From an uncultured Lewinella sp. (GTDB taxonomy: Bacteria; Bacteroidota; Bacteroidia; Chitinophagales; Saprospiraceae): 64,000 nt of DNA. The translations under genes and the position numbers were made by a program. Within the stretch, counting starts at the first letter, position 1. Each line of letters starts with the position of its first letter. Under the pieces are notes generated by a model, which saw only the letters and a list, made by a program, of their open reading frames with translations, was not told the origin of the DNA and searched no databases. The DNA lies in assembly GCA_913057725.1 (NCBI GenBank), contig CAJXOS010000018.1, positions 1 through 64,000 on the forward strand. Reading direction: 5' to 3'. This document shows, in pieces, positions 5,644 to 42,582 of this stretch.

Positions 5644-8600
5644 TTATTTCACAATAACAAGCGGTGTGACGCTTCCCTCCGCTGATCGTATCCAATAGCT
5701 TCCAGCAGGAAGGAAGCTTACATCTAAGTTCTGAACACGTTCTTCTACGCTGATTTGACGTAGAATCTGCCCGGAAGTGCTGTACAAACTCAATTCTTGC
5801 GGTAGGGTCAAATTGCCACAATCGATTCGAATAAGTGAGCTGGCTGGATTCGGATTAATTGTGATCATATCCGATGCCTGTAGATTATCCGCCGAGGTAA
5901 TCATGATGTTTACTTCCTCGCAATGTTGTGCGCTACCCCAAACATTACCGGCCGTCAGGCATACGGTATAAGTGCCATCCGTCAGGTAGGCGTGGGTGGG
6001 GTTCTGGTCGGTACTGGTGCCACCATCTCCGAATTCCCAAAACCAAGTGTCCGGGTTATTGCTGGAGGCATCGGTAAATGTAGCCTCTAGCTCGTTGGTG
6101 TTGTATTCAAAATCCGTTACCGGTGTAAAGTTGGGTAGTGTTTCTACTACGATATTTTCCACAGTGTTGGTAATGATCGGTGGGTTGAAATCAAAGTAGA
6201 TACCTGCCGAATTTTCAATGACGGTACCTTCTTCTAGGTCTGGCTGAACCGCGATCTCGAACTGCACAAATCCATGGCTGCCGGGCTCGTTGGTCGTGCT
6301 ATCTACCAAAAGGATATCCCGGAAGTGGAATTCCAATAGCCCATCGTCATGCAAAGTGGCTTCGTATGGGTGGCTACTGCTGCCCGGTTCGAAGGTGCTC
6401 CAATCGAGCTGCGGGGAAAGCTGGTCGCGAAGCACGATGTTAAAGGCGGTGTCGGTACCCGTGTTTTGGAAACGGAGGGTGTACAGAAGCTTTTCATCGT
6501 AGAGCGTGTAGTTCTCCGTAAAAGGTGGTTGTTCCGAACGATTTGGGTACACCAATTTATCGTTCGGGTCATAGGCGCAATTGATGATGGAGAGGAAATC
6601 AAAAGTAGTAGCTGGAAGTGGCTGCCCACTAGCATTAAGCGGGATTACACCTGAAGCGATCTCCAAAGGAGAGCCCAGGAACTCAACTCCAGCTATGGTC
6701 ATCTCTAGCTCTACTGAGCGACTGGTGCCAGGGGTGAGGTTGGCGAAGTTCCAAAAGAGGGTGTCACCATTGGTACTACTAGGCTCAGGCGATGCCGAAA
6801 TGAAAGTGGCCAAGTCGTTCAATACCAAATAGGCTCGGCCATTAAAAATCCAACAGCCGTCATTACGATAGTTGAGCCAGAATGGAACAGTGAATCCACA
6901 ACGTGTCGGTGCAGAGGCCAGCGTCACCGCACCTTCGGGTAGTTCCGTGTTGGGTGCTACACCAAAACGCAAGGTATCAATGCTCGTGGTGCCGTCGAAA
7001 TCTATGTTGTAGCTTTCTGGAGAGGTGGTTAGCGTCCAACATTCTTCTAGTTCAGGACTTAAGGTGTAGTTGCCGGAGGCTCCGTATACGGTAAAACGCC
7101 CGTCATTGTCAGAGAAGATTGCCAGGGCATCTGGAGTTACCTGGATAGGGACACTACCAATACCAGCTTCATCATTATCCTGCACACCATTCGCATTTTC
7201 GTCATAAAAGATGGTGCCAGAAATGCTTTCGTCATTAGCGAGGTTGTAGGAAATGAAAAGCGCTTCCTGACTACTAAATATTTCTTCATTACCCTTGCCA
7301 ATAATATCAAGGTCACCATCTTCGTCAATGTCATGCATGATAAAACCACGCACCTCTGGCATAGTACCGACTAGTTGTATCGGTTCGGCAAAGACACCCG
7401 TGCTTGTTTGTGGTATCCACTGCATCGGTTCATTGTAGTAAGAAGCAAAGATGATGTCCTTTAAACCATTGAGGTCAAAGTCGGCGTAGGCAAATTGTAC
7501 CGCTGGTGGGTTGCCTTCGTATATAATCTCCTGGCTGCCGAAAGAACCATTGCCCAAGTTGGGCCACCAGGATATGTTTGCGGTGCCACCACCACCGGCA
7601 TCATTAGAGGCAATAAGGTCTGGTAGACCATCTCCATTTACATCTCCGGCTTCTGCGTACAGAGCAGTTGTAAAGTTGCTCGGGATGCCCTGCAATGGCC
7701 CATAATTGCCATTAGAGGTATGCTCCATCCGTCCAAGTAGAGGTGCATCATCTTTTGATATGATCAGGTCGAGTTGTTCATCTTGGTCAAAATCAGCGAT
7801 AAGGATGTCGAGTGGACCGGTGATATTATTGAGCAAGAAGATCGATTCCGACCAACTGCCGCCATCATTGCGTTGCCAGCCAATAGCACCGTTTGGTTGC
7901 CCTACGAAGCCAGGCTGCACCCACAGCATATCTAGATCGCCATCATGATCTACATCTACCAATTCCATCTCTCGCTGAGGGTTAAAGAAGGTCGGGAAGG
8001 GAGTAGAATCGCTAAATGATCCGTCTCCGTTGTTCATGTAGAAGCAGAAGTCCGAAGCGCTAGATGCACCATCCTGGATACTTCCTGAGAGAACGTCCAT
8101 CCATCCATCATTATTGATATCTGCTACCGCAACTGTATTAGGAGCATAATTGTGGCGGCGAGCAATCAACTTCGGCTGAGAAAAGGAATCGCCTAGGTTC
8201 TTGAACCAAACCAGGGCATCAGTACCATCGGAACCGATTACAATGTCTGTACGACCATCATTGTCAAAGTCTGCTACGCGGGGTGAACTTAAGGTGCGTC
8301 CACCAATAGTTATTAGAGCCGGAGGCTTAAACTCCCCTCCACCTGTCGATTCTCGCCAGAGCACGGCTTCCTTGGGTGGGCTGTTACTGTTGATGCCGTA
8401 AAGTAGGTCGGGAAAACCATCGTTGTTGAGATCAGTAGCTTCCATAAAACGCATATAGGCGGCCCATATCTCAAGTTGAACGGTCTCGCCAAAGTTGCCA
8501 TTGCCATCATTAGCGCGCCACTCAATTTCGTCCAGGCCATGGCAAGAAATGATATCCAAATCGCCATCCATGTCCATGTCCGCAACTTCAACATAGTTAT

Positions 8601-9444
8601 GCCAGCCTCGAGAATAAAGGGTGTCCACCAGCTCAAAATCGCCATCTCCTAGGTTGCGGTACCATACCAGGCCAGCCCCTACTTCATTGTCTTCGCCCCA
8701 GTTGGCACAAACAATATCCGGCATTTCGTCCCCATCAAAGTCTGCGGCATATACAGATCGGGGATAGTCATAATTAGCCTCAATAACTTGATAGTCACCA
8801 AAGCTTCCGTTGCCCAAGTTTTCGTGCCACACCAGCTGGTCATTGCCCGCTGCGGTTAGCAAAATGTCCACGTCATCATCACCGTCAAGATCCTCAGTAA
8901 ATACAGAGGTAACTGTTGTGTGCTCGTCGGAGAGTAACTGCGGAGACCCAAAACTGCCATTACCATTACCTGCTAACCAACGCGCCTCTTCCGCGCGCCC
9001 AACGACCACATCAAGGTGGTTATCGCCGGTAATGTCCGCTACGTAGAAATCAATAATTGCGCCCGGAGAGTAGATCAGCTCTACTTCGCTCAAACTTCCA
9101 TCGGCAGTGCCAAAATAAACGCCGAGACCTGTTTCAGTACTGCAATAGAGGAGGTCTTCGTAGCCGTCCTCATTAATGTCAGCGGTAATTAAGGTACGGT
9201 AGCGCTCTCCCGTAGTTGAGAGCACATTCTGTCGTGAATAAGTGCCATCTTCCAATTGTGCTAACCAAAAGAGGCGCTCGGAAGAGGCTACTACTACATC
9301 GAGTGCTCCGTCTTGATTAACATCCATTGAAGTGGTAAATAAGACATCGCCTACGGGCTCGAAAAGTAAATAGGGTGGGGATACCTGCGCTGATAATGCA
9401 GTAAAGGCAAAGAATAAGAAAGAGAGGAGTAGAGTTTTCTTCAT
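5644..9444 (-). CDS. FG-GAP/VCBS repeat protein with PKD domain and T9SS C-terminal sorting domain
   Basis: Many D-x-[DN]-x-D-G repeats (DVNQDGALDVV, DINEDGYEDLL...), PKD (WEFGDGGTSTDQNPTHAY), C-terminal INPNPASSLIRI... Confidence 0.9.
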   Translation of the reverse strand: MKKTLLLSFLFFAFTALSAQVSPPYLLFEPVGDVLFTTSMDVNQDGALDVVVASSERLFWLAQLEDGTYSRQNVLSTTGERYRTLITADINEDGYEDLLYCSTETGLGVYFGTADGSLSEVELIYSPGAIIDFYVADITGDNHLDVVVGRAEEARWLAGNGNGSFGSPQLLSDEHTTVTSVFTEDLDGDDDVDILLTAAGNDQLVWHENLGNGSFGDYQVIEANYDYPRSVYAADFDGDEMPDIVCANWGEDNEVGAGLVWYRNLGDGDFELVDTLYSRGWHNYVEVADMDMDGDLDIISCHGLDEIEWRANDGNGNFGETVQLEIWAAYMRFMEATDLNNDGFPDLLYGINSNSPPKEAVLWRESTGGGEFKPPALITIGGRTLSSPRVADFDNDGRTDIVIGSDGTDALVWFKNLGDSFSQPKLIARRHNYAPNTVAVADINNDGWMDVLSGSIQDGASSASDFCFYMNNGDGSFSDSTPFPTFFNPQREMELVDVDHDGDLDMLWVQPGFVGQPNGAIGWQRNDGGSWSESIFLLNNITGPLDILIADFDQDEQLDLIISKDDAPLLGRMEHTSNGNYGPLQGIPSNFTTALYAEAGDVNGDGLPDLIASNDAGGGGTANISWWPNLGNGSFGSQEIIYEGNPPAVQFAYADFDLNGLKDIIFASYYNEPMQWIPQTSTGVFAEPIQLVGTMPEVRGFIMHDIDEDGDLDIIGKGNEEIFSSQEALFISYNLANDESISGTIFYDENANGVQDNDEAGIGSVPIQVTPDALAIFSDNDGRFTVYGASGNYTLSPELEECWTLTTSPESYNIDFDGTTSIDTLRFGVAPNTELPEGAVTLASAPTRCGFTVPFWLNYRNDGCWIFNGRAYLVLNDLATFISASPEPSSTNGDTLFWNFANLTPGTSRSVELEMTIAGVEFLGSPLEIASGVIPLNASGQPLPATTFDFLSIINCAYDPNDKLVYPNRSEQPPFTENYTLYDEKLLYTLRFQNTGTDTAFNIVLRDQLSPQLDWSTFEPGSSSHPYEATLHDDGLLEFHFRDILLVDSTTNEPGSHGFVQFEIAVQPDLEEGTVIENSAGIYFDFNPPIITNTVENIVVETLPNFTPVTDFEYNTNELEATFTDASSNNPDTWFWEFGDGGTSTDQNPTHAYLTDGTYTVCLTAGNVWGSAQHCEEVNIMITSADNLQASDMITINPNPASSLIRIDCGNLTLPQELSLYSTSGQILRQISVEERVQNLDVSFLPAGSYWIRSAEGSVTPLVIVK

Positions 9445-27466: not shown

Positions 27467-27997
27467 TTAGATGTCTTCTAGTACACCTTTCCACTCGCCG
27501 GTGAGGGTTTTGCCGTCGGCGGTAAGGGTGAAGGTGATGGTTGTTTCGGTACCATCAATGGCAATATCTACGGTGCCATCGGTGAAGGCTACCTTGGTGC
27601 CGGAGAAGGTGTCGAGGTTGTAGTCGAGAAAAACTTCCGAACCAGGAACGATCGTGAAAGCATTGCGGACATCAGCCCAGTTGTAGGTGCCGGCCTTGAG
27701 CCCCGTGGAACTATCCGTGTTGAGATCCAGATAGACGATTTCTCCCTGACCAGTGAGGCTGAAGCCAGACTTATCTACTCCCGCTGTAACGAGGAAGATA
27801 TCCCAGTCGTGGGAGCTGTTGAGGTTGGCACCCACATCGTTCAAGAAGCCCTTGGCTAGGGCGTAGGTAGTGCCGTCGTAGGTGAACTCATTCTTGATGG
27901 TGGTGCCAGGATCGTCGTCGTCATTGTTACAGCCAGAGAATACCGTGAAGGCAGTGATTGTTAATAGGGCAAAGAATACATTTTTCATCAGTGTCAA
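27467..27997 (-). CDS. Surface lipoprotein, paralog of 28576-29100
   Basis: Lipobox FSGC, acidic CNNDDDDPG; EFTYDGTTYALAKGFL...HDWDIFL. Confidence 0.8.
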   Translation of the reverse strand: MTLMKNVFFALLTITAFTVFSGCNNDDDDPGTTIKNEFTYDGTTYALAKGFLNDVGANLNSSHDWDIFLVTAGVDKSGFSLTGQGEIVYLDLNTDSSTGLKAGTYNWADVRNAFTIVPGSEVFLDYNLDTFSGTKVAFTDGTVDIAIDGTETTITFTLTADGKTLTGEWKGVLEDI

Positions 27998-28575: not shown

Positions 28576-29100
28576 TTACACATTTTCTAGTGTTCCGGAC
28601 CATTCGCCGGTAACGGTGCTTCCATCAGAGAGCGTCAGGGTAAAGGTGATCGTCGTATTAAAACCGAGGGTGCGAATATTGACAGTGCCATCGCGGGCGT
28701 CAATAGCGGTGCCCTCGAAGGTGCCGAGGTTGTAGTCGAGGCCCATAGTGCCCACGACGAGCGAAAAATCGCGTCGGGTGGCCGACCAGCTGTAGTTGCC
28801 AGCGAGCAGGCGTTCGGAGCTACTGACGTTGAGGTCGAGGTAGATATAGTCGCCGATGCCCGTGATACCGAAGGCGTCACCCTTGGTGATGCTTTCGGAA
28901 GTGAGGTAGACATCCCAGTCGTGGATGGCGCCGCCGTTGGTGCCAAAGTCGATCAGGTAGCCATTGGGTACATCATAGGTGGTATCATTGTAGGTGAACT
29001 CGCGGGGGCCACCAAAATCGTCGTCATCGTCCCTGGGGTTACAGGAGGTAAGGACCGAAAAAGCAAAGAGCACAAAGAGCACGTAATAGACTTGGTTCAT
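28576..29100 (-). CDS. Surface lipoprotein, paralog of 27467-27997
   Basis: MNQVYYVLFVLFAFSVLTSCNPRDDDDDFGG; EFTYNDTTYDVPNGYL...HDWDVYL; start trimmed from 29283. Confidence 0.8.
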   Translation of the reverse strand: MNQVYYVLFVLFAFSVLTSCNPRDDDDDFGGPREFTYNDTTYDVPNGYLIDFGTNGGAIHDWDVYLTSESITKGDAFGITGIGDYIYLDLNVSSSERLLAGNYSWSATRRDFSLVVGTMGLDYNLGTFEGTAIDARDGTVNIRTLGFNTTITFTLTLSDGSTVTGEWSGTLENV

Positions 29101-29301
29101 GATCGTGGACATAAGTGGGTGCAGTGAGCGTGATGTTCTTTTAAGTATAACGAAGGTAAGTCTAAATTGTGCGTACGAGGGTTGATTGTGCGGCGGTGGG
29201 AATGGTAACCAGCCGGGGGGCAATTTTTTCAAAAAAAGGAGCTGGTCGCTACAAGTAGGGGCTGATTTTGCGATCTTTCTCATTCAAAAACCGCCGGACC
29301 T

Positions 29302-30830: not shown

Positions 30831-31787
30831 ATGAACGAAAGGAATAAGGGAATAGTAGCGGTGGTGCTGGCGGCACTGGTGTGGAGTACGGCGGGGCTGT
30901 TTATCAAATGGTTGCCGCAGGATGCCTTCACGATATTGTTTGTGCGGGCTATCTATACGATGCTGGTGTTTTATGCGGTGTACCGCCTGGAGGTGCTGCG
31001 CTTTAATAGGCAGACCTTCATCAATATGCTCTTTTATGCGGGGCTGCTGGTGTGTTTTGTGACCTCCACGAAATGGACCACCGCGGCTAATGCCATCTTT
31101 TTGCAGTATACGGGCGTGGCCTACGTACTGCTGCTGGAGCCGCTGTTGTTTAAGCTGCCGTACAGGCGCATCAACATCATCACTACCGTGGTGTGCTTTT
31201 TGGGGATGAGCCTCTTCTTTATGGAAGACTTTGATGCCAGTGGCGGCTGGGGGCTCATCATAGCGGCGGTATCGGGCGTGGCCTATGCGGGTTTTATGCT
31301 GGGCCAGCGTGCCAACCCGCCGGAGTACCACGTGGCGGCGGTGTTTTGGGGTAATCTGCTGGTGGCGGGCATAGGGCTGCCGAGCTTCCTGGCGGCGGGG
31401 AGCTTTACGATGGAGGCACAGCTGATGCTGGCCTACCTGGGCCTGATACAGATGGGCTTGGGCTATCTGCTATTCACCTACGGCCTGAAGCGGACCACCG
31501 CCACGGAGACCTCGCTAATAACCATGCTGGAGCCGCTCTTTAACCCGGTGTGGGTGGCAGTGGGGTACGGGGAAAAGCCTAGCGTGCTGGCGATAGTAGG
31601 CGGGGTGATAATAGTGGTGGCGCTGATTGTGCGGATTTTGGTGCTGCGGAAAACGGTGGGGCGGGAGCGGAAGGTGGAGAAATTGGGTGAGGGTACCCTG
31701 TACTACGTACCTAGTACTAAACAATCTTACTGCTTGATGATCATTTGCTGCTGGATATCTTTGCCTGCTTGTACCTGTAAGAAATAG
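30831..31787 (+). CDS. DMT family transporter (EamA)
   Basis: 10-TM EamA pattern; abnormal C-terminal tail overlapping the next gene. Confidence 0.9.
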   Translation: MNERNKGIVAVVLAALVWSTAGLFIKWLPQDAFTILFVRAIYTMLVFYAVYRLEVLRFNRQTFINMLFYAGLLVCFVTSTKWTTAANAIFLQYTGVAYVLLLEPLLFKLPYRRINIITTVVCFLGMSLFFMEDFDASGGWGLIIAAVSGVAYAGFMLGQRANPPEYHVAAVFWGNLLVAGIGLPSFLAAGSFTMEAQLMLAYLGLIQMGLGYLLFTYGLKRTTATETSLITMLEPLFNPVWVAVGYGEKPSVLAIVGGVIIVVALIVRILVLRKTVGRERKVEKLGEGTLYYVPSTKQSYCLMIICCWISLPACTCKK

Positions 31788-33307
31788 GTGCCTGCTGGCA
31801 GATTCGCTGGTGTATACCACTGCAGCTCGGTGAGCTCCTGTTGGTTGGGGATGTGCTCTTCTGCTACCAGCTGGCCCACACTGTTATAAAGGCTTACCTG
31901 TGCCGATACACCCACCGGTACCTCCATTGTGACCATGCTCACTTGGGAGAATGGGTTGGGGGAGGTTTGGAGGGTGAGGTGGGTAAGTGTTGGATCGGTC
32001 TCTATACGTCTAGTCCCACCGTCGGCTTCAGATTGTGAGAAATAATTACTAAGATTCAGAACTTGTCCATTCTCAACGGTTGTGTTTAGTGCGGGAACAA
32101 TGTCGGCATTCGATAAAAGCAGGCTCTTTATTTCGACCATGGATGAGTTAGGATTAGCTATAGCTAGCTGAGCAAGTGCAGCAGTTACTTGAGGTGCGGC
32201 AAAAGAAGTACCCGTAGATAAATAATAATTTGAGCCATCATTGGTGAGAATGTCTACAGCCTCTGTTGCAATTTCATAAAACTCTGGATTGGAATTTGTT
32301 CCTTGCCAAGGTTGAGTGAAGCACTGTTCTGTACCAGCAACGGATATTTCCGTCGCTAGGGCTATTTCGCCTGGAAAAACATTCCTTCTCGAGTCAAAGC
32401 CTTGATTACCAGCAGCACTGACTAACGTGATATTATCAAATGGAATAATTGGGGAACTACCTGCGGTAGTACCAAAAATTTCCGCCCATTCTTGCTTTAA
32501 TGTCGAAGAACCTCCAGCTAGGTGTCCTGTTGTAGTAATTAGGTTGGCACTGAAATTAACGATGACTCTATCTTCTGGCCCCCAGTCGCCGGACTCGAAT
32601 TGATCTTCCAAATAACCAGCCAGTTTTAACAAAATGTCTGAGGTACTTTGCCCTGTGTTTTCGAAAGTCACGAGGTTCAAATATTCAACTCCTGTAGCTC
32701 CAGTCTGTGTCAGGATATTTTCGATCACGGAAAATACTTTTAGACCATGAGTTCCCCCTAAAACTGTTGAATCATTAAACAAATTGATTGTAGTCATTCC
32801 AGGTATATATTGATCAGCGATGATGACCTTTATTCGTTCTTGGTTGGAATTCACAGACTGATCTTGACCAATAAGTCGATTATTGTGACTATCGTCACAG
32901 TTTGGAAGAGGGTCGAATGTTCCATTAGAATATAAAAGCCCACCATCTCCTATGAATAGTAGCATTTGCAAATCTCCGTCTTGGACATTGCTACGAGCTG
33001 TCGAATTTCCTTGTTCCCCATTTTGGATATTGATGTGCCAAAGCAATTCCTCAACATTATTAATGATTGAGGATTCACCATTTTCGGTGTAAGTGATGGG
33101 GAAGTTAATATTTGCCCAAAGTTCAAGTCTATTGTCAGAGTTTATCGTTGAATATTCCGAAATTCCGTACAGGTCGCGCAGCACTTGTTGGTTAATAGGT
33201 GATGCGCTAGAAGTATACCGAACAATAAACTCACTGGAAGAATAACTTTGGGCGGTAAGTTGAAACGCTAATGATAGTCCTAGGAGCACTTTTACAATTG
33301 TGTTCAT
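31727..33307 (-). CDS. S8-like (subtilisin-like) serine protease with T9SS sorting domain
   Basis: GGTHGLKVFSVI (His), VSAAGNQGFD, GTSFAAPQVTAALA (Ser); C-terminal LQTSPNPFSQVSMVTM...GTYFLQVQAGKDIQQQMIIKQ. Confidence 0.85.
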   Translation of the reverse strand: MNTIVKVLLGLSLAFQLTAQSYSSSEFIVRYTSSASPINQQVLRDLYGISEYSTINSDNRLELWANINFPITYTENGESSIINNVEELLWHINIQNGEQGNSTARSNVQDGDLQMLLFIGDGGLLYSNGTFDPLPNCDDSHNNRLIGQDQSVNSNQERIKVIIADQYIPGMTTINLFNDSTVLGGTHGLKVFSVIENILTQTGATGVEYLNLVTFENTGQSTSDILLKLAGYLEDQFESGDWGPEDRVIVNFSANLITTTGHLAGGSSTLKQEWAEIFGTTAGSSPIIPFDNITLVSAAGNQGFDSRRNVFPGEIALATEISVAGTEQCFTQPWQGTNSNPEFYEIATEAVDILTNDGSNYYLSTGTSFAAPQVTAALAQLAIANPNSSMVEIKSLLLSNADIVPALNTTVENGQVLNLSNYFSQSEADGGTRRIETDPTLTHLTLQTSPNPFSQVSMVTMEVPVGVSAQVSLYNSVGQLVAEEHIPNQQELTELQWYTPANLPAGTYFLQVQAGKDIQQQMIIKQ

Positions 33308-33554
33308 GCTTTTGAATGATTATTTAAGAATATATATCATTACTATAAGCTCGTGTACTTTAAAACGTGACTACTTTTTTAGAATATTTCTTGCAATTCT
33401 GTAGTTGCAACAGATAAGTGTTTTTGTATTGTGTGATTTTGTCATTTATATAATTCTCTAGGTAAGAAAAGAAAAAACTTAGTAAATGTAATAGTTAATA
33501 TAATTGATATGCCATTCTTAGTAACAGGATCTAATCGATCCCTTGCTTATTATT

Positions 33555-33598
33555 AACCATGTGTCGTTTTGTTTTTTCTTGCAAAACGACACATGGTT
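33555..33598. promoter_or_regulatory. 17-bp perfect inverted repeat in a divergent intergenic region
   Basis: AACCATGTGTCGTTTTG-ttttttcttg-CAAAACGACACATGGTT. Confidence 0.9.
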
Positions 33599-33839
33599 TT
33601 GCGACGGGGCGAATTACTTTAGTTTTTGAAAAAATGAATCCATGTTGCTAAGTTGTAGATTTCTATTTTGAGAATTTTCTAACTTTTATACGCAAAATGA
33701 CTGAAAACGTCTGGACTCTAGAACAGGTTAATTAAATTACTCGATTTTCTGTTTCATTACTTAGTGTAGTATTTATGATCTAGCTCTATCTGCCACCCTA
33801 ATTTCTTATTTCGCTTTATTTATTACGTAGAAAACTGAA

Positions 33840-36755
33840 TTGAACATGATCAGATGTCTAAAAATAAGCATAGTATTGATTTGTTGCAGCTTTCAACTCT
33901 TAAGCCAAAATGGTGATGCGTCTGTCTTTCAATTAATTGCCAAAGCTAGGACGACAGACAACAAAGAAAGTTTACCATTTATTGATGAAGGCTTTATAAT
34001 ATGCAATTTACGATCTTGTTCAGATTCAATAATTGGAATGCTCTATCAGAGAAAAAGTGTCGCGTTTTACAGAGACTATATTGATGATAACTTAGCTGTA
34101 TTGTATGCTGATTCTGCCACGCTTTATTATGAAAGAGCTTTTACTAATCCTAATATGCTCATTGCAAACTCTTACTTTAATAAAGGTACAATGCAACGAG
34201 AAATCGGAAGAATTGAAGAGGGAAAGGAATCAATAGAGATAGCGCTCGATAGATTACAACAGATACAGAGACAACTTCCAGATGAGGACTTAGACTCAAT
34301 AAAGGTCAATTGGAATTTTGATCTTGTTAGGATTTATACTCAGAAAGGAGACTTCAAAACGGCACTCGAAAAGGCTCGACAATTGATCAGCGAAAATGAG
34401 CTGAATAGATTTAACGAGAAACGATTCACAAATCAATTAGGCTTGATAAACCTTGCACAAGGCAATTATCGATCTGCAAAAGATAGATTCTCTTACCTAG
34501 TTGAAGTTCTTCACGCGGATGAGGATATTACCTACAGAGGAAATTTAGGCCTTGCATTTCTGAATCTGCAAGACTTTGATAAAGGCGCAACATATTTAGA
34601 AGAAGCAAATCAGGCATGGAAAAATCTCTTGAACCAGACGGACAACAATTACAATAGGAGATATTTATCAAATTCTCATTCTAATCTTTTCCAGCTATAT
34701 CTGGAGTTAGGAGATTGGAACAAGGCCGATTATCATATTACTGAGGCATTAGCTCTCCTTCGTAAAGTTGACAATACCGAGAGTATGATTCGCTTCGCGG
34801 AGCTCTATTTTAAGAAATCTAGGCTGGAACATGCTTTAGGAGACTACGATAGTAGCCTTTTTTTTCTAGAAACGGCAATTGATATCGTAGCCCCTGAACT
34901 GTTCCATACTGGTACCGAAGAGCAGATTAGCATTATTGGTAACTTTAAAGAAGCCCTCGAAATTATCGCCTTCCGTGCTCAAGTCCTGGCGGAACAGGGA
35001 GAATTGAATAAAGCCTTGGATGATGTGATGCTCCTCAATCGGCTGGTGACACAAAGTAGGAGAACGTACCAATCTTCCCTCTCTAAGTACTTTTTGATTC
35101 AGAAGGTGGTGCCGGTGTATGAGTTGGGGATCAGGCTGAACCGAGAGCTGTATGCCCAGACGGGGGACCGAGAGTATCTGGAGCAGGCCTATGCGCTGAA
35201 TGCCAGAAACAAAGCCATACTGCTACTGGAAAGCCTGCAAAGTGAACGGGCCATGACTTTTGCTGGGCTACCCGCGGAAATACAAGGACAAGAACGAGAA
35301 TTGCGGGATGCGGTTTCGGAGCAGGAGAGCTTGCTGTATCAAGCTTACCAGCAGGGCGATGATATTGATAGCCTACAAAGTGTGGTGTTTGAGCAGGAGC
35401 AGGCCTACTATCAGTTTATCCAGCAGCTGGAACGGGACTACCCGGCGTATTACGAACTGAAATATAGCGCGGATCGGCCACCGGTAAGTAACGAAATACA
35501 AGATAAACTAGAGAGCGATCAGGTACTGCTAGAGTACTTTACGGGTCAGGATAGTATCTATACCTTCCTGATGGATGGACGGGAAATGCGGGTATACAGT
35601 AAGGCAAAGCCAGCGGGTTTCGTGGATTCGGTAGCGCTGTTTAGGGAGTTGCTAACAAATGGAATTGAGAAAGATTGTGAGCAGACCTACATCCGTCTGG
35701 GGCGGTATTTTTATGATCTCTTGCTGGCTGAACCGCTCGGGAGCCTTGGAGAGCATAAGCAGCGCCTGGTAGTAGTGCCAGACGGATTGCTGAATTTCCT
35801 TTCTTTTGAGGCTTTCATCTATAAGGATCTGGAACGTCTGCAGGGTGCTGAAGGCTTCTTGGTGGAGAAATATGCTTTTAGCTATGCCTACTCCAGTAAG
35901 CTGCTCCTAGAGGAAGAATATTATCCGCGGAGCGCGACCAAAGGCTTTGCAGGATTTGGGATGGAGTACGACGACTACACCCTGGATTATCTGCAAGAAC
36001 TGGAATATGGTGATTGGAAGTACGTAGATACTACCCTGGTACTGCCATGTGGCCAACTGAAGGATACCACGCGCTATTATGGAAAGCTAATCTACTCGGA
36101 TGATGAGGTACGGGATATCGCTGCCTTGGCGGAGGGTGACAGCTGGCTAAACGAAGAAGTGATGAAGCAAAGCTTCATGGACAATGCCAACGGCTATAAG
36201 CTCCTCCACTTGGCTATGCATGGCACCTATGATTTGGAGTTTCCGATGAACTCATCGCTCATCTTTAGTCGGAGAGATTCGACTGATATTTTCTTGCGGG
36301 CAGCCGACATCTATAACATGGAACTGGATGGTGATATGGCGGTGCTGAGCGCTTGCAATACGGCCTATGGAAAGCTGCAAGCAGGGGAAGGTCCGATGAC
36401 TTTGGCGCGGGCATTCCACTACGCCGGCATACCAGCAGTAGTGGCCAGTCTCTGGAGTATACCTGATAACTCGACCTCGCGGATTATGAGGTTGTTTTAT
36501 CAGGAGCTGGATAAAGGACTGTCAAAGGATGTGGCCTTGCAGCAAGCAAAGTTGGCATACCTGGCCAGTGATGATTTAAGCTCGCCGAATTCCAGGCAGC
36601 CGCTACACTGGGCACCTACTATAGTGATCGGGGATGTAGCGCCGGTGCCGATTTCGCCGCGTTCGAATTGGTGGTGGATTTTGCTGGGGGCTGGAATTCT
36701 GCTTGGCGGATATTTGATGGTGAGAAGAGGGAAAGCGAACGATGCGATAAGTTAA
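33840..36755 (+). CDS. TPR-CHAT domain protein with signal peptide and C-terminal TM helix
   Basis: TPR-like N-terminal half; CHAT motifs HLAMHG (His) and LSACNTAYG (Cys), ARAFHYAGIPAVVASLWSI; C-terminal NWWWILLGAGILLGGYLMVRRGK. Confidence 0.92.
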   Translation: MNMIRCLKISIVLICCSFQLLSQNGDASVFQLIAKARTTDNKESLPFIDEGFIICNLRSCSDSIIGMLYQRKSVAFYRDYIDDNLAVLYADSATLYYERAFTNPNMLIANSYFNKGTMQREIGRIEEGKESIEIALDRLQQIQRQLPDEDLDSIKVNWNFDLVRIYTQKGDFKTALEKARQLISENELNRFNEKRFTNQLGLINLAQGNYRSAKDRFSYLVEVLHADEDITYRGNLGLAFLNLQDFDKGATYLEEANQAWKNLLNQTDNNYNRRYLSNSHSNLFQLYLELGDWNKADYHITEALALLRKVDNTESMIRFAELYFKKSRLEHALGDYDSSLFFLETAIDIVAPELFHTGTEEQISIIGNFKEALEIIAFRAQVLAEQGELNKALDDVMLLNRLVTQSRRTYQSSLSKYFLIQKVVPVYELGIRLNRELYAQTGDREYLEQAYALNARNKAILLLESLQSERAMTFAGLPAEIQGQERELRDAVSEQESLLYQAYQQGDDIDSLQSVVFEQEQAYYQFIQQLERDYPAYYELKYSADRPPVSNEIQDKLESDQVLLEYFTGQDSIYTFLMDGREMRVYSKAKPAGFVDSVALFRELLTNGIEKDCEQTYIRLGRYFYDLLLAEPLGSLGEHKQRLVVVPDGLLNFLSFEAFIYKDLERLQGAEGFLVEKYAFSYAYSSKLLLEEEYYPRSATKGFAGFGMEYDDYTLDYLQELEYGDWKYVDTTLVLPCGQLKDTTRYYGKLIYSDDEVRDIAALAEGDSWLNEEVMKQSFMDNANGYKLLHLAMHGTYDLEFPMNSSLIFSRRDSTDIFLRAADIYNMELDGDMAVLSACNTAYGKLQAGEGPMTLARAFHYAGIPAVVASLWSIPDNSTSRIMRLFYQELDKGLSKDVALQQAKLAYLASDDLSSPNSRQPLHWAPTIVIGDVAPVPISPRSNWWWILLGAGILLGGYLMVRRGKANDAIS

Positions 36756-37082: not shown

Positions 37083-38900
37083 ATGCGCACCCGACTTGTA
37101 CTGATCTTTTTGCTGGGCGTAGGCCTATCGCTGCCAGCACAAAATAGCATTGAATACCAACTGGACCTGGATAATATACAGCACCATGAGCTGGGTATAC
37201 AGGTGAGCTTCAAGGCCTTGCCGCCACAGCCGCTGGTGGTGCGCATGCCCACCTCCTCACCTGGGCGCTATGCGGAGCACAACTTTGCGAAAAATGTATA
37301 CGATGTAGCAGCCCAGGATGCGGATGGAGCAGACCTGCCCCTGAGCCGAACGGGGATCAACGAATGGACGGTGAGTGGCCACGATGGGGTGGTAATGCTG
37401 AGCTATACCCTGTACGCCAACCGAGCTGACGGCACCTACGCTAAGGTGGACAACCGCAAGCTGCACCTGAATATGCCCGCCACCTTTGTGTACGGGGTGG
37501 GGCTGGATGAGCGGCCCGTGGAGCTGCTATTTCCTGAGAATGAACAAGCGGACTGGAAAGTAGCGACCCAACTGGAGCAGGTGACGGAGCATCGCTACCG
37601 GGCACCGAATTACTACTACTTTTATGATAGCCCTACCTTCTATGGCGATATACGGTTTCGGAGCTGGGAGGTGCCACATAAAGACGGCAGCCAGACGATA
37701 GAGATGGCTTTCCTGACCCCTGACCCCGATAGCTTGCTGGACGCCTACGCGGAATGGACGAAGAAGATCGTGGCGGAGCAGCAGGCGATATACGGTGAGC
37801 TGCCCGACTTTGACTTTGGACGCTACACCTTTTTGTGTGCGTATAACCCCTATGTGAGTGGCGATGGTATGGAGCACCGCAACAGCACGGTATGTAGTGC
37901 GCCGGTGCCGCTGGAGGGCTATAGTGAGCGACTGATAGGCACGATATCGCATGAGTTTTTTCACTGCTGGAATGTAGAACGGATACGCCCAGCCAGTCTA
38001 GAACCTTTTGACTTTGATCGGGCGAACCAATCGGGCGAGCTGTGGTTTGCGGAAGGCTTTACGAGCTATTTTGATGACCTAACGCTGTGCCGCGCGGGCA
38101 TCTTGAGTGAGGAGGAGTACGTGGAAGGCTTGCAAGGTATGCTAAACTATGTACTACTACGCCCCGGTACGCGCCACCGGGGTCCGATAGGGATGAGTCA
38201 ATGTGCACCATTTGTGGATGCAGCCAGCTCGATAGACCCCGATAACTTTGATAATACCTTCATTAGCTACTACTCTTATGGGGCGGTGCTAGGTATGGCG
38301 CTAGACCTGGAGCTGCGCCGGAGCCATGATACAGACCTGAACGCGTACATGCAATTGGTGTGGGATGAATACGGACAGCCAGAGATACCGTACAACATAC
38401 CCGACCTCAGGAACGCCTTGGGCAAGCTAACGGAGGACGAAACCTTTGCCAAGGAATGGTTTGCGAAGCATGTGTATGGCAGTCAGCTGCCGGATATGGC
38501 TGGGCTGCTGGCGGAATTTGGTGTGCGGGTGCTAGTAGAAGAACCCGATTCTGTAGGCTTTCTGCAGTTGAGATTGCGCGATACCGAAGAAGGCTTGGAA
38601 GTGCGAGGGACGGTGTACGAAAACAACCCACTATATGCAGCTGGCCTGGAAACGGGCGACATCATTACGGCACTAAACGGCGAAGCCGTAACTACACAAG
38701 AGGACTGGGATGCAATAGTTTCGGGACTGAGTTTAGGAGAACGCTATAGCATAGCCTATACGCAGAACGGAGTGGCCAGCACGGGGATGTTTACGGCAGG
38801 AGCAGATCCGAGTTTTGAGGTGATGATGATGCCTAAGCGAAAGATGGATAAGAAGGCGGCAGAACGCCAAGCTGCCTGGTTGGCGCCTAGTGGACGATAG
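37083..38900 (+). CDS. M61 family metallopeptidase with PDZ domain
   Basis: HEFFHCWNVERIRP zinc motif, LWFAEGFTSYFDDL; C-terminal PDZ. Confidence 0.95.
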   Translation: MRTRLVLIFLLGVGLSLPAQNSIEYQLDLDNIQHHELGIQVSFKALPPQPLVVRMPTSSPGRYAEHNFAKNVYDVAAQDADGADLPLSRTGINEWTVSGHDGVVMLSYTLYANRADGTYAKVDNRKLHLNMPATFVYGVGLDERPVELLFPENEQADWKVATQLEQVTEHRYRAPNYYYFYDSPTFYGDIRFRSWEVPHKDGSQTIEMAFLTPDPDSLLDAYAEWTKKIVAEQQAIYGELPDFDFGRYTFLCAYNPYVSGDGMEHRNSTVCSAPVPLEGYSERLIGTISHEFFHCWNVERIRPASLEPFDFDRANQSGELWFAEGFTSYFDDLTLCRAGILSEEEYVEGLQGMLNYVLLRPGTRHRGPIGMSQCAPFVDAASSIDPDNFDNTFISYYSYGAVLGMALDLELRRSHDTDLNAYMQLVWDEYGQPEIPYNIPDLRNALGKLTEDETFAKEWFAKHVYGSQLPDMAGLLAEFGVRVLVEEPDSVGFLQLRLRDTEEGLEVRGTVYENNPLYAAGLETGDIITALNGEAVTTQEDWDAIVSGLSLGERYSIAYTQNGVASTGMFTAGADPSFEVMMMPKRKMDKKAAERQAAWLAPSGR

Positions 38901-39014
38901 TGACTGCTGCGACCAGAAAGTGTGGATGTTAGAGCGCGGACAATATTGACTACTCCGAAGCAACTATTCAGGGGACTGCCGGGTTGTAATGAGGCACGAA
39001 AACCAAACTGAAAC

Positions 39015-39653
39015 ATGACACATATAGATTGGCAAAACCTGGAGGGCCGCTACACCTATGAAGAATTCCGTCAACTGACGGATAACCTGCTTGCCGAAGG
39101 CAAAACGACGGGAGAGGATCACAGCCCTGCGATGATCAATTACACCGAACTCAATGTAGTGCGTATGCGCAGACTGGATAAGCGATCGCGACTGACGGAG
39201 GAAAGCCAAACGGCCTTGGCTGGTATCCAGCGCCCGATGATATGGCTGAGCATAACGGAGGCCTGGTGTGGCGATGCGGCTCAGATCATACCCGTGTTGC
39301 AGCAGATGGCCGATGAGCATCCGTTAATTGAGCAGCACCTAATCCTTCGCGATGAGCACCTAGATATTATGGATGCTTTCTTGACGAATGGCGCCCGTTC
39401 TATCCCGGTAACCATAGTGCTGGATAAAGAGACGAACGAGGTACTGGGCCACTGGGGCCCACGCCCGTCGGAACTGCAAGCACAGGTGATGGCAGCGAAG
39501 GCAGCTTCCATAGCTGCACCGACACCAGAAGAGCGTCGAGAAATAACAGCTCAATCTAAGGTGGAGACTCAGAAGTGGTACGCCCGAGATAAGACCCGCT
39601 CTACCCAGAACGAGATGCTACAAACCGTAGCTGCCCTGACGACTGAGGAGTAG
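39015..39653 (+). CDS. Thioredoxin family protein
   Basis: PMIWLSITEAWCGDAAQIIPVLQQMA...IPVTIVLDKETNEVLGHWGPRP. Confidence 0.85.
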   Translation: MTHIDWQNLEGRYTYEEFRQLTDNLLAEGKTTGEDHSPAMINYTELNVVRMRRLDKRSRLTEESQTALAGIQRPMIWLSITEAWCGDAAQIIPVLQQMADEHPLIEQHLILRDEHLDIMDAFLTNGARSIPVTIVLDKETNEVLGHWGPRPSELQAQVMAAKAASIAAPTPEERREITAQSKVETQKWYARDKTRSTQNEMLQTVAALTTEE

Positions 39654-40889: not shown

Positions 40890-42582
40890 TAAGTGGGCCA
40901 TCCCTGTAAATTACCCTAAGACTAGTGGTTCGGAATAAAATTTGGCTTAACAAGACCAGTCAATAGCCGAGGTGTACACTTTGGGGTGTCGATTTTTGGC
41001 TTTTCTGTGATTTGTAGATTTGATAATGGGCTTATAGTGGGGATTCTTGAGAGGTATGGACATAGGTCTTCCATGGTCTAAGTGGTCAACTTATCAAGAA
41101 GTGCATTCAGGCTGCTTGTTGCTGCTGCTGAGCAGCGGTGCGTTTTGCGATTTTCACGGCGGAAGCCGTCCACACTCCAAAGTGTATCCACAGTTTCTGG
41201 GTATCGGCTCGCGTAGCTTTGATTCGATTGAGCCCGTAATGGAGTTTTTCATTGCCGATAGCTCCCTCCATGTGAGCTGCTCTGGCACTTCGCAGTTGCT
41301 TTTTGAGCTTTCGCGCTACTAGGTCAGGTACTTTAGGCTTGCGTCCTTTAGGTACAAAAGTGGTAGTCATACCTGCGCAGTAGCGCCGATTAGTATTGGT
41401 ACCATAGATGTTATCAGCTCCCAGTTGCCGACACTTTTTAAAGTAGCTTTCGTGGCGCTCGACTGTGGCGGATAAACGAAGTGCTTCATTAAAATTGTCA
41501 AAGCTGAAGTACTCAACGAAGCTGATCCCATCCACATTAAAGAGGTGAACTTTGGGACCAAACTCTACCTTTTTAATCTCTTTGCCTCTCACGATAGGTC
41601 TTACCCAGGGTTGAGATAGACTCACAATACGGTCGTGGATCTTAGCTTCGGGGTCTTGAAAGTGGAGTAGTTGCTGCTCATAGATTTGTTCAACGGTTAG
41701 TTTACGCAGCATCTGTCGGGTAGACAATACAATAGCTGAGCCGTGAGTTTGCTTAAGCTTAGCCCAGCAGGTCAACCCTTTTTTCAACAATCGCAACAAG
41801 GAGCGAGTAATGGAGATACGACGTGAACGCGGCTTGCGCCTGAGTTTTTGAAAGGCCACGTAACGTTCGTAAACCGGTTTTTGCTTACGCCGCAGACGGG
41901 GTTGATTGAGTTTACCGGTCCACAGGTCGATCAATGACCATAACCACTCACAACACTCCCACAATAGTTTTGTATCCGTAGGATAGCGAATGGCTAGCTC
42001 ATAGCTAGTGGCGTCCATTAATGTAGCAGATTGCTGTTGAATATGAGTACTCCAGTAACTAGCCAGTTGCTCTTGGAAAGCATCATAGTCAATTTGCTCA
42101 GCCAAATAACGCCGGCAACGACCAACAATATCCTTATCCTTAATCATCTGGCCTGGCCCTAATCGTATGCCACAGAAGTACTGCAAGGCCCAATCGGTAT
42201 TGATGCGCTGACGAAGTTTATCATCGCTCAAGTTCAGGTAGGCTTTTAGTACCTGAAGACCGATCATACCCTCGATACCAAAAAAGCTTGGAGCGCCACG
42301 AGATGGTGGGGCTGGAAATAAGGTGGCTAAACTTGAAAAAGGAATGGCTTGGTACAACTGGCCCAGCTCCGTACTCAAAAAGATATCCCAACGAAAATCG
42401 CGGCCAGCTTGTGTACAGAAAATTTGGTTTTCCATACAATATTTGCTCTCTTGCTTGTCTGTAAAATATGTTCAGCCCCGAAAATCAGCCTTATTGACTG
42501 TTTTCGGGGCTTTTATTTCACCTGCAAGTTAAGTAACTCGCTGGATATTAGTCCATTATAATTTACAGGGATGGCCTAAGTG
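40890..42582. mobile_element. Complete IS element (40896-42576, 1681 bp) with 18-bp TIRs and 6-bp TSD
   Basis: Left TIR GGCCATCCCTGTAAATTA (40896-40913), right TIR TAATTTACAGGGATGGCC (42559-42576), flanking direct repeat TAAGTG (40890-40895, 42577-42582). Confidence 0.92.
41107..42435 (-). CDS. DDE transposase, IS5/IS1182-like
   Basis: N-terminal DUF772-like domain (GIEGMIGLQVLKAYLNLSDDKLRQRINTDWALQYFCG), DATSYE, GADNIYGTNTNR, AIGNEKLHYGLNRIKA. Confidence 0.9.
   Translation of the reverse strand: MENQIFCTQAGRDFRWDIFLSTELGQLYQAIPFSSLATLFPAPPSRGAPSFFGIEGMIGLQVLKAYLNLSDDKLRQRINTDWALQYFCGIRLGPGQMIKDKDIVGRCRRYLAEQIDYDAFQEQLASYWSTHIQQQSATLMDATSYELAIRYPTDTKLLWECCEWLWSLIDLWTGKLNQPRLRRKQKPVYERYVAFQKLRRKPRSRRISITRSLLRLLKKGLTCWAKLKQTHGSAIVLSTRQMLRKLTVEQIYEQQLLHFQDPEAKIHDRIVSLSQPWVRPIVRGKEIKKVEFGPKVHLFNVDGISFVEYFSFDNFNEALRLSATVERHESYFKKCRQLGADNIYGTNTNRRYCAGMTTTFVPKGRKPKVPDLVARKLKKQLRSARAAHMEGAIGNEKLHYGLNRIKATRADTQKLWIHFGVWTASAVKIAKRTAAQQQQQAA

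What the first reader, a model, noticed from the sequence alone, without database searches (positions are those of the whole stretch)
31727..36755. Divergent pair: T9SS-exported S8-like protease and membrane-anchored extracytoplasmic TPR-CHAT protease
Seen: a subtilisin-like ORF with a C-terminal T9SS sorting domain (minus) faces a TPR-CHAT ORF (plus) with intact His (HLAMHG) and Cys (SACNT) motifs, a signal peptide and a C-terminal TM helix. Known: CHAT is a caspase-like clan CD protease domain and TPR-CHAT proteins are often effectors gated by a sensor or partner. Inference: the pair may be a two-protease module in which the exported protease and the envelope CHAT protease activate or regulate each other. 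The predicted topology (CHAT outside the inner membrane) is unusual compared with cytoplasmic CHAT effectors.
Basis: partly seen in the sequence, partly recalled or inferred. Interest (0 to 1): 0.75.

Follow-up and report, generated by a model that had tools for sequence, protein, structure and literature searches.

The report
Paired envelope proteases, subtilisin and caspase-like
Two neighbouring genes in a Bacteroidota bacterium (Lewinella group) encode an exported subtilisin protease and a membrane-anchored caspase-like protease predicted to face outside the cytoplasm; they are kept, duplicated and diversified together, and belong to a large, so far apparently undescribed set of envelope gene modules in this family.

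Summary
At 31727-33307 (-) lies a subtilase with signal peptide, intact Asp/His/Asn/Ser and a T9SS sorting domain; at 33840-36755 (+) a signal peptide-TPR-CHAT-TM protein with intact His794/Cys839. The divergent pair is conserved in the genus (Lewinella; G001 twice, G002); in G001 the extra copy was duplicated as exactly these two genes. Elsewhere in the family the usual form is a tandem S8->CHAT operon: 13 tandem, 4 divergent and 1 convergent pairs in nine genomes against about 4 expected. So the link is not chance. But the topology is not unusual (46 of 59 sampled CHATs have it), and S8 is one of several exported partners (others: CDC-like pore-former, DUF7619-T9SS proteins). Many such loci carry an ECF sigma factor and a membrane TPR anti-sigma-like protein; the closest solved CHAT is the transmembrane anti-sigma factor DdvA. 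The two G001 pairs differ mainly in the S8 catalytic domain and CHAT N-terminal TPRs; the rest is nearly identical, marking these as specificity parts. Best reading: a partner-specific envelope protease module in which the TPRs recognise the exported S8 and CHAT processes or gates it. Mutual activation is possible but untested. New variant of a known kind.

The parts
31727..33307 (-). S8 (subtilisin-like) serine protease, 526 aa, exported, T9SS type A sorting domain
   Evidence: ORF and Pfam/NCBIfam matches; orthologues in G001 (two) and G002
33248..33307 (-). signal peptide of the S8 protein (residues 1-20, MNTIVKVLLGLSLAFQLTAQ)
   Evidence: sequence and hydropathy; inference, no SignalP
32813..32815 (-). 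catalytic Asp165 of S8
   Evidence: alignment of CHAT-linked S8 proteins, coordinates
32747..32749 (-). catalytic His187 of S8 (GGTHG)
32405..32407 (-). oxyanion Asn301 of S8 (SAAGNQ)
32204..32206 (-). catalytic Ser368 of S8 (TGTSFAAP)
31730..31960 (-). T9SS type A C-terminal sorting domain (Por_Secre_tail)
   Evidence: PF18962 and TIGR04183 matches
33308..33839 (.). divergent intergenic region, 532 bp here against 115-150 bp in the orthologous pairs
33840..36755 (+). signal peptide-TPR-CHAT-TM protein, 971 aa (TTG start; the ATG at 33846, two codons on, is as likely)
33846..33908 (+). signal peptide-like N-terminus (MIRCLKISIVLICCSFQLLSQ)
   Evidence: hydropathy; inference
33915..35474 (+). 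TPR/alpha-solenoid region, residues about 26-545; residues about 1-290 are the segment that varies between paralogous pairs
   Evidence: Pfam TPRs, AlphaFold2 model pLDDT 81, identity profiles
35697..36635 (+). CHAT caspase-like protease domain (residues 620-932)
   Evidence: PF12770 E 1.5e-52; fold match to Csx29/TPR-CHAT and separase
36219..36221 (+). catalytic His794 (HLAMHG)
36354..36356 (+). catalytic Cys839 (SACNT)
36666..36725 (+). C-terminal TM helix followed by RRGK
   Evidence: hydropathy, helix 944-970 in the model

Best explanation
The pair is a functional unit and one member of a modular family in Saprospiraceae: a constant inner-membrane-anchored, periplasm-facing TPR-CHAT cysteine protease plus a changeable exported partner. 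Both proteins cross the inner membrane by a signal peptide. The S8 protein must pass the periplasm on its way to the T9SS, where the CHAT protein stands. I think the N-terminal TPR superhelix recognises its own S8 partner and the CHAT domain then makes a limited cut in it, or holds it and is switched by it, so that the S8 protease becomes active only when and where it is exported. Shown: both genes, intact catalytic residues, predicted topology, recurrent linkage, duplication as a two-gene unit, divergence concentrated in the S8 catalytic domain and the TPR N-terminus. Inferred: physical contact, direction of cleavage, and timing.
For: Pair conserved as neighbours in the genus, 4 of 4 copies found; the extra G001 copy was duplicated from about 220 bp beyond the S8 stop to about 300 bp beyond the CHAT stop, without the M61 neighbour. 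In nine genomes 18 S8-CHAT pairs within 4.5 kb against 4.0 expected, Poisson P 2e-7; 13 are tandem with S8 upstream, 12 of them with no gene between, median gap 95 bp, against about 0.23 expected, gene density assumed. S8-linked CHATs need 10 label changes on the CHAT tree, at least 5 forced by well-supported branches. All 17 linked S8s keep Asp/His/Asn/Ser. G001 paralogues: 95-100% DNA identity in the S8 tail and the last 2 kb of CHAT, 77-94% in the S8 N-terminal part, but 45-68% in the S8 catalytic domain and 52-66% in the CHAT TPR N-terminus. Other exported partners sit in the same place. Precedent: envelope clan CD proteases of Bacteroidales (C11) activate exported CDC-like toxins (PMC11169675).
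Against: No interaction or cleavage was tested. In G001/G002 the two variable segments do not co-segregate strictly: G002 has an S8 domain nearer G001 copy A but TPRs nearer copy B. Co-divergence of S8 and CHAT over distant pairs is weak (r 0.30, 93 of 2000 permutations as high, one pair per genus clade). Most sampled CHATs have no S8 neighbour. The S8 structure model is poor (pLDDT 57).
Confidence: 0.45

Rival explanations
1. Sigma-factor signalling: the periplasmic TPR-CHAT protease cuts a transmembrane anti-sigma factor and so releases an ECF sigma factor, like DegS/RseA or Craspase (Csx29 cutting Csx30, which holds CASP-sigma). The exported S8 would be a sensor component or a regulon product. 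At the window locus the sigma/anti-sigma pair would be elsewhere in the genome.
For: ECF sigma plus a TM-TPR protein next to many CHAT loci: in the own genome 8 of the 13 best TM-TPR hits lie by a CHAT gene (my count); sigma factors confirmed by Pfam; two TM-TPR-like proteins have sub-threshold zf-HC2 motifs. Closest solved CHAT domain by sequence is DdvA, named 'transmembrane anti-sigma factor' (8rot, E 2.1e-9), i.e. the two functions fused in one protein. Csx29 precedent in PMC10028731.
Against: No sigma gene was found in the sampled neighbourhood of the window pair or its divergent orthologues. Does not explain why an S8 gene is the immediate partner so often.
Confidence: 0.25
2. Two-protease cascade: the S8 protease activates CHAT (or each activates the other) by cleavage.
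For: Both enzymes look catalytically intact; pairing is recurrent; the S8 protein passes the CHAT compartment.
Against: CHAT with the same architecture occurs with partners that are not proteases (CDC-like, DUF7619-T9SS), so an S8 activator is not a general need; direction untested.
Confidence: 0.2
3. The two genes are neighbours without functional link.
For: S8 and CHAT families are both large in these genomes (8-28 and 11-27 copies).
Against: Observed 18 against 4.0 expected pairs, unit duplication, repeated pairing on the tree.
Confidence: 0.04

Closest known systems
DdvA, transmembrane anti-sigma factor with a CHAT domain (PDB 8rot, 8rw5; DdvS/DdvA of Myxococcus xanthus)
   Same: TM protein with a TPR-like region and a C-terminal CHAT domain retaining the aligned His and Cys; best sequence match of the CHAT profile among solved structures and third in the fold search
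   Different: DdvA is itself the anti-sigma factor (PMC4374960); the window protein has a signal peptide and a C-terminal TM instead of an anti-sigma domain, and an S8 gene as neighbour
Csx29 / TPR-CHAT of type III-E CRISPR (Craspase)
   Same: TPR solenoid followed by CHAT, same overall fold (8eey, 7y8t; best E 2.9e-15, TM-score 0.4-0.5); Csx29 cuts an inhibitor of an ECF sigma factor (PMC10028731)
   Different: cytoplasmic, RNA-guided through Cas7-11; no signal peptide or TM; no CRISPR genes among the neighbouring ORFs
C11 surface proteases (fragipain, DpnB) that activate Bacteroidales CDC-like toxins
   Same: clan CD cysteine protease in the envelope acting on exported proteins (PMC11169675)
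   Different: C11 lipoproteins, not TPR-CHAT; no stated gene linkage to the substrate in the passages read
HetF of Anabaena
   Same: CHAT and TPR domains with one TM segment (PMC8406250)
   Different: other domain order (CHAT first); window protein matches the HetF model only at 15 bits against a cut-off of 1200
Ietas-type anti-phage S8 peptidase (IetS)
   Same: S8 peptidase encoded with a partner protein
   Different: window S8 matches IetS models only marginally (E 8e-4); partner here is CHAT and the protein is exported

Membership tests
Peptidase family S8 (subtilases) | catalytic Asp, His, Ser and oxyanion Asn in a subtilisin fold | tested here: met
   PF00082 E 1.9e-10; residues aligned with the other linked S8s; subtilisins are the top solved relatives by profile and by fold, though the model is weak
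T9SS cargo | signal peptide plus C-terminal T9SS sorting domain in an organism with T9SS | tested here: met
   TIGR04183 over cut-off; SprA present; export itself not testable
CHAT domain proteases | CHAT domain with catalytic His-Cys dyad after a TPR region | tested here: met
   PF12770 E 1.5e-52; His794/Cys839; fold. Activity not testable
Type III-E Craspase | association with Cas7-11 and CRISPR, cytoplasmic TPR-CHAT | tested here: not met
   signal peptide and TM present; no such genes among neighbouring ORFs
DdvA-type anti-sigma CHAT | anti-sigma domain and TM ahead of the TPR-CHAT, cognate ECF sigma gene next to it | tested here: not met
   window protein begins with a signal peptide and has its TM at the C-terminus; no sigma gene in the sampled neighbourhood
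Saprospiraceae envelope TPR-CHAT plus exported partner modules (described here) | signal peptide-TPR-CHAT-TM gene with an exported protein gene directly beside it | tested here: met
Known anti-phage defence systems | match to PADLOC models above noise | tested here: not met
   no match for the window CHAT; only marginal subtilase/IetS matches for S8

The most novel reading that the evidence does not exclude
Saprospiraceae carry a dozen or more envelope 'caspase modules' each: a periplasmic TPR-CHAT protease with an interchangeable exported effector (subtilase, CDC-like pore-former, adhesin-like protein), often wired to its own ECF sigma/anti-sigma pair. The window pair would be a streamlined, recombining member whose TPR sensor and S8 catalytic domain diversify as specificity cassettes: an extracytoplasmic counterpart of Craspase and DdvA signalling.
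Probability: 0.3. Interest if true: 0.82.

Novelty: new variant of a known kind. Interest (0 to 1): 0.6.

Why it matters
TPR-CHAT proteases are known mainly as cytoplasmic, RNA-gated enzymes (Craspase) and as relatives of eukaryotic separase. Here is a large branch predicted to be extracytoplasmic, with 11-27 CHAT genes per genome in the nine Saprospirales-type genomes counted, tied by gene order to exported effectors and to ECF sigma/anti-sigma-like genes. It connects two solved systems, DdvA and Csx29, and poses a simple testable question: what does an envelope CHAT protease cut? I found no paper in the open library that describes S8-CHAT pairing or envelope TPR-CHAT modules in Bacteroidota.

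Tried and rejected
Scan of named genomes with the window CHAT alone found nothing; with the genus alignment one locus, Lewinella cohaerens DSM 23179, whose contig has the same length as G002:C13. Strict co-variation of S8 and TPR segments: rejected, because G002 combines an A-like S8 domain with B-like TPRs. Deep co-phylogeny: only weak. S8-CHAT pairing outside the family: among 20 loci from a phylum-wide sample two had an S8-like gene two genes away, separated by an unrelated-looking gene, which I treat as doubtful; sigma-CHAT neighbourhoods did recur there. Defence system: no PADLOC support. The intergenic hairpin as a repeated mobile element: rejected, its arm occurs nowhere else in the genome. 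The TM-TPR proteins do not match DdvA or another solved anti-sigma factor by sequence beyond their TPRs, so their anti-sigma role rests on gene order, topology and two weak zf-HC2 motifs.
Full report
Observation. The window holds, back to back, an S8 protease gene at 31727-33307 on the minus strand and a TPR-CHAT gene at 33840-36755 on the plus strand. The S8 protein has a signal peptide-like start, a Peptidase_S8 domain (E 1.9e-10) and a C-terminal T9SS sorting domain (Por_Secre_tail E 2.6e-6; TIGR04183 38.5 bits, cut-off 23). The Pfam match begins late in the model, so I checked the catalytic residues by alignment: Asp165, His187, Asn301 and Ser368 are present and conserved in the genus copies and in all 17 S8 proteins paired with a CHAT in tandem or divergently; the one convergent neighbour (L127) lacks the standard Asn motif (coordinates). 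The T9SS translocon protein SprA is encoded in the same genome. The CHAT protein scores E 1.5e-52 to PF12770, keeps His794 and Cys839, starts with a signal peptide-like stretch and ends with a TM helix followed by RRGK. An AlphaFold2 model (pLDDT 81) gives one long TPR/alpha-solenoid, residues about 25-545, followed by the CHAT fold and the terminal helix.

Where it comes from. The genome is 7.19 Mb in 340 contigs. A same-genus genome, G002, matches Lewinella cohaerens DSM 23179: the named contig found has the same length (345091) as G002:C13. I call the family Saprospiraceae after that placement (own knowledge of the taxonomy).

Recurrence in the genus. The pair has orthologues as divergent neighbours in G002 and twice in G001 (S8 44-51% identity, CHAT 59-60%). 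The window copy, one G001 copy and the G002 copy share the downstream M61 peptidase gene and a following gene of about 211 aa. The other G001 copy sits elsewhere; the DNA similarity between the two G001 copies begins about 220 bp beyond the S8 stop and ends about 300 bp beyond the CHAT stop. So the two genes moved or duplicated as a unit.

Recurrence in the family. In nine genomes I listed all S8 and all CHAT domains. Eighteen S8-CHAT pairs lie within 4.5 kb, against 4.0 expected from gene numbers and genome sizes (Poisson P 2e-7). Thirteen are tandem with S8 upstream of CHAT, four divergent (the genus pairs), one convergent. Twelve of the tandem pairs have no gene between them and a median gap of 95 bp, against about 0.23 expected for a co-directional direct neighbour (assuming 1.25 kb per gene). 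Orthologous loci are counted more than once, so these P values are guides only. On a tree of 60 CHATs the S8 label needs 10 changes and at least 5 are forced by well-supported branches. The S8-CHAT link has therefore formed, or been lost and re-formed, several times.

S8 is one partner among several. The genes directly upstream of other TPR-CHAT genes encode, in place of S8, a protein with a thiol-activated cytolysin (CDC) domain (L106, L109; E 3e-36 and 3e-37), DUF7619 proteins with T9SS tails (L103, L104, L105, close relatives of the window CHAT), and others. The constant part is the envelope TPR-CHAT protein: 54 of 59 have a signal peptide-like start, 46 have this and a C-terminal TM, and the tail after the TM is net positive in 45.

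Sigma factors. Many of these loci also hold an ECF sigma factor gene and a gene for a protein with an N-terminus of about 60-100 residues, one TM helix and C-terminal TPRs. Two such proteins show sub-threshold zf-HC2 matches, a typical anti-sigma zinc finger. In the window's own genome 8 of the 13 best TM-TPR hits lie next to a CHAT gene (my count). Sigma-CHAT neighbourhoods also occur in other Bacteroidota. None was found near the window pair.

Structural relatives. By fold the CHAT protein matches Csx29/TPR-CHAT of Craspase best (E 2.9e-15), then the transmembrane anti-sigma factor DdvA (8rot) and separase. By sequence profile of the CHAT domain alone DdvA is the best solved relative (E 2.1e-9), ahead of Craspase TPR-CHAT (E about 2e-5), and it keeps the aligned His and Cys. 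DdvA is the anti-sigma factor of the ECF sigma factor DdvS; the signal that inactivates it was not known in 2015 (PMC4374960). Csx29 cuts Csx30, an inhibitor of an ECF sigma factor (PMC10028731). So the membrane setting and the sigma link of CHAT have precedents, although the topology of DdvA rests on its title and description, not on a test of mine.

Which parts vary. The two G001 pairs are 95-100% identical in DNA over the S8 tail and the last 2 kb of CHAT and 77-94% over the S8 N-terminal part, but only 45-68% over the S8 catalytic domain and 52-66% over the first 290 codons or so of CHAT. Such sharp borders suggest recombination: cassette exchange, or conversion of the flanks. The S8 catalytic domain and the N-terminal TPRs are therefore the parts free to differ, as expected of recognition surfaces. 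They do not travel strictly together: G002 has an S8 domain like copy A and TPRs like copy B.

Mechanism. The best-supported model is that the N-terminal TPRs recognise the cognate exported partner in the periplasm and CHAT processes or gates it, here the S8 protease on its way to the T9SS. A Bacteroidota precedent is the activation of exported CDC-like toxins by envelope clan CD (C11) proteases (PMC11169675). The genetic unit, the predicted topology and the catalytic residues are shown; contact, direction and timing are inferred. I give these 0.45, 0.25 and 0.2.

Novelty. The families are known; I found no description of S8-CHAT pairing or of envelope TPR-CHAT modules with exchangeable exported partners in the open literature held. 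Subscription journals are mostly not in that library. I rate it a new variant of a known kind.

Noticed in passing
window 33555-33598: Perfect hairpin with an 18-bp stem in the divergent intergenic region (DNA fold -18.7 kcal/mol, z -7.3); its arm occurs nowhere else in the genome, and the intergenic region is about 400 bp longer here than in the orthologous pairs.
   Followed up: partly
L099 10186-11796 and 7099-10035 against L100 6762-8345 and 8496-11426 (G001): Paralogous S8-CHAT pairs in one genome with near-identical flanks but strongly diverged S8 catalytic domain and TPR N-terminus.
   Followed up: yes
L106 5147-6973 and L109 4961-6763: CDC-family (thiol-activated cytolysin domain) genes directly upstream of TPR-CHAT genes, with ECF sigma genes nearby.
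   Followed up: partly
L103 5242-6774, L104 5845-7377, L105 3500-5170: DUF7619 plus T9SS-tail proteins as CHAT partners; DUF7619 also occurs in the large FG-GAP/PKD T9SS protein at window 5644-9444.
   Followed up: no
window 41107-42435: Transposase gene (DUF772, DDE) about 4 kb downstream of the pair.
   Followed up: no
window 27467-27997 and 28576-29283: Two similar small lipoprotein-like genes close together on the minus strand.
   Followed up: no
window 37083-39653: M61 peptidase plus a following gene of 212 aa, conserved downstream of the CHAT gene in G001 (L100) and G002 (L101).
   Followed up: partly
L113 139-6153 (G006): 2005-aa protein with MG2/A2M, carboxypeptidase-regulatory and TonB plug domains directly upstream of a TPR-CHAT gene.
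   Followed up: no
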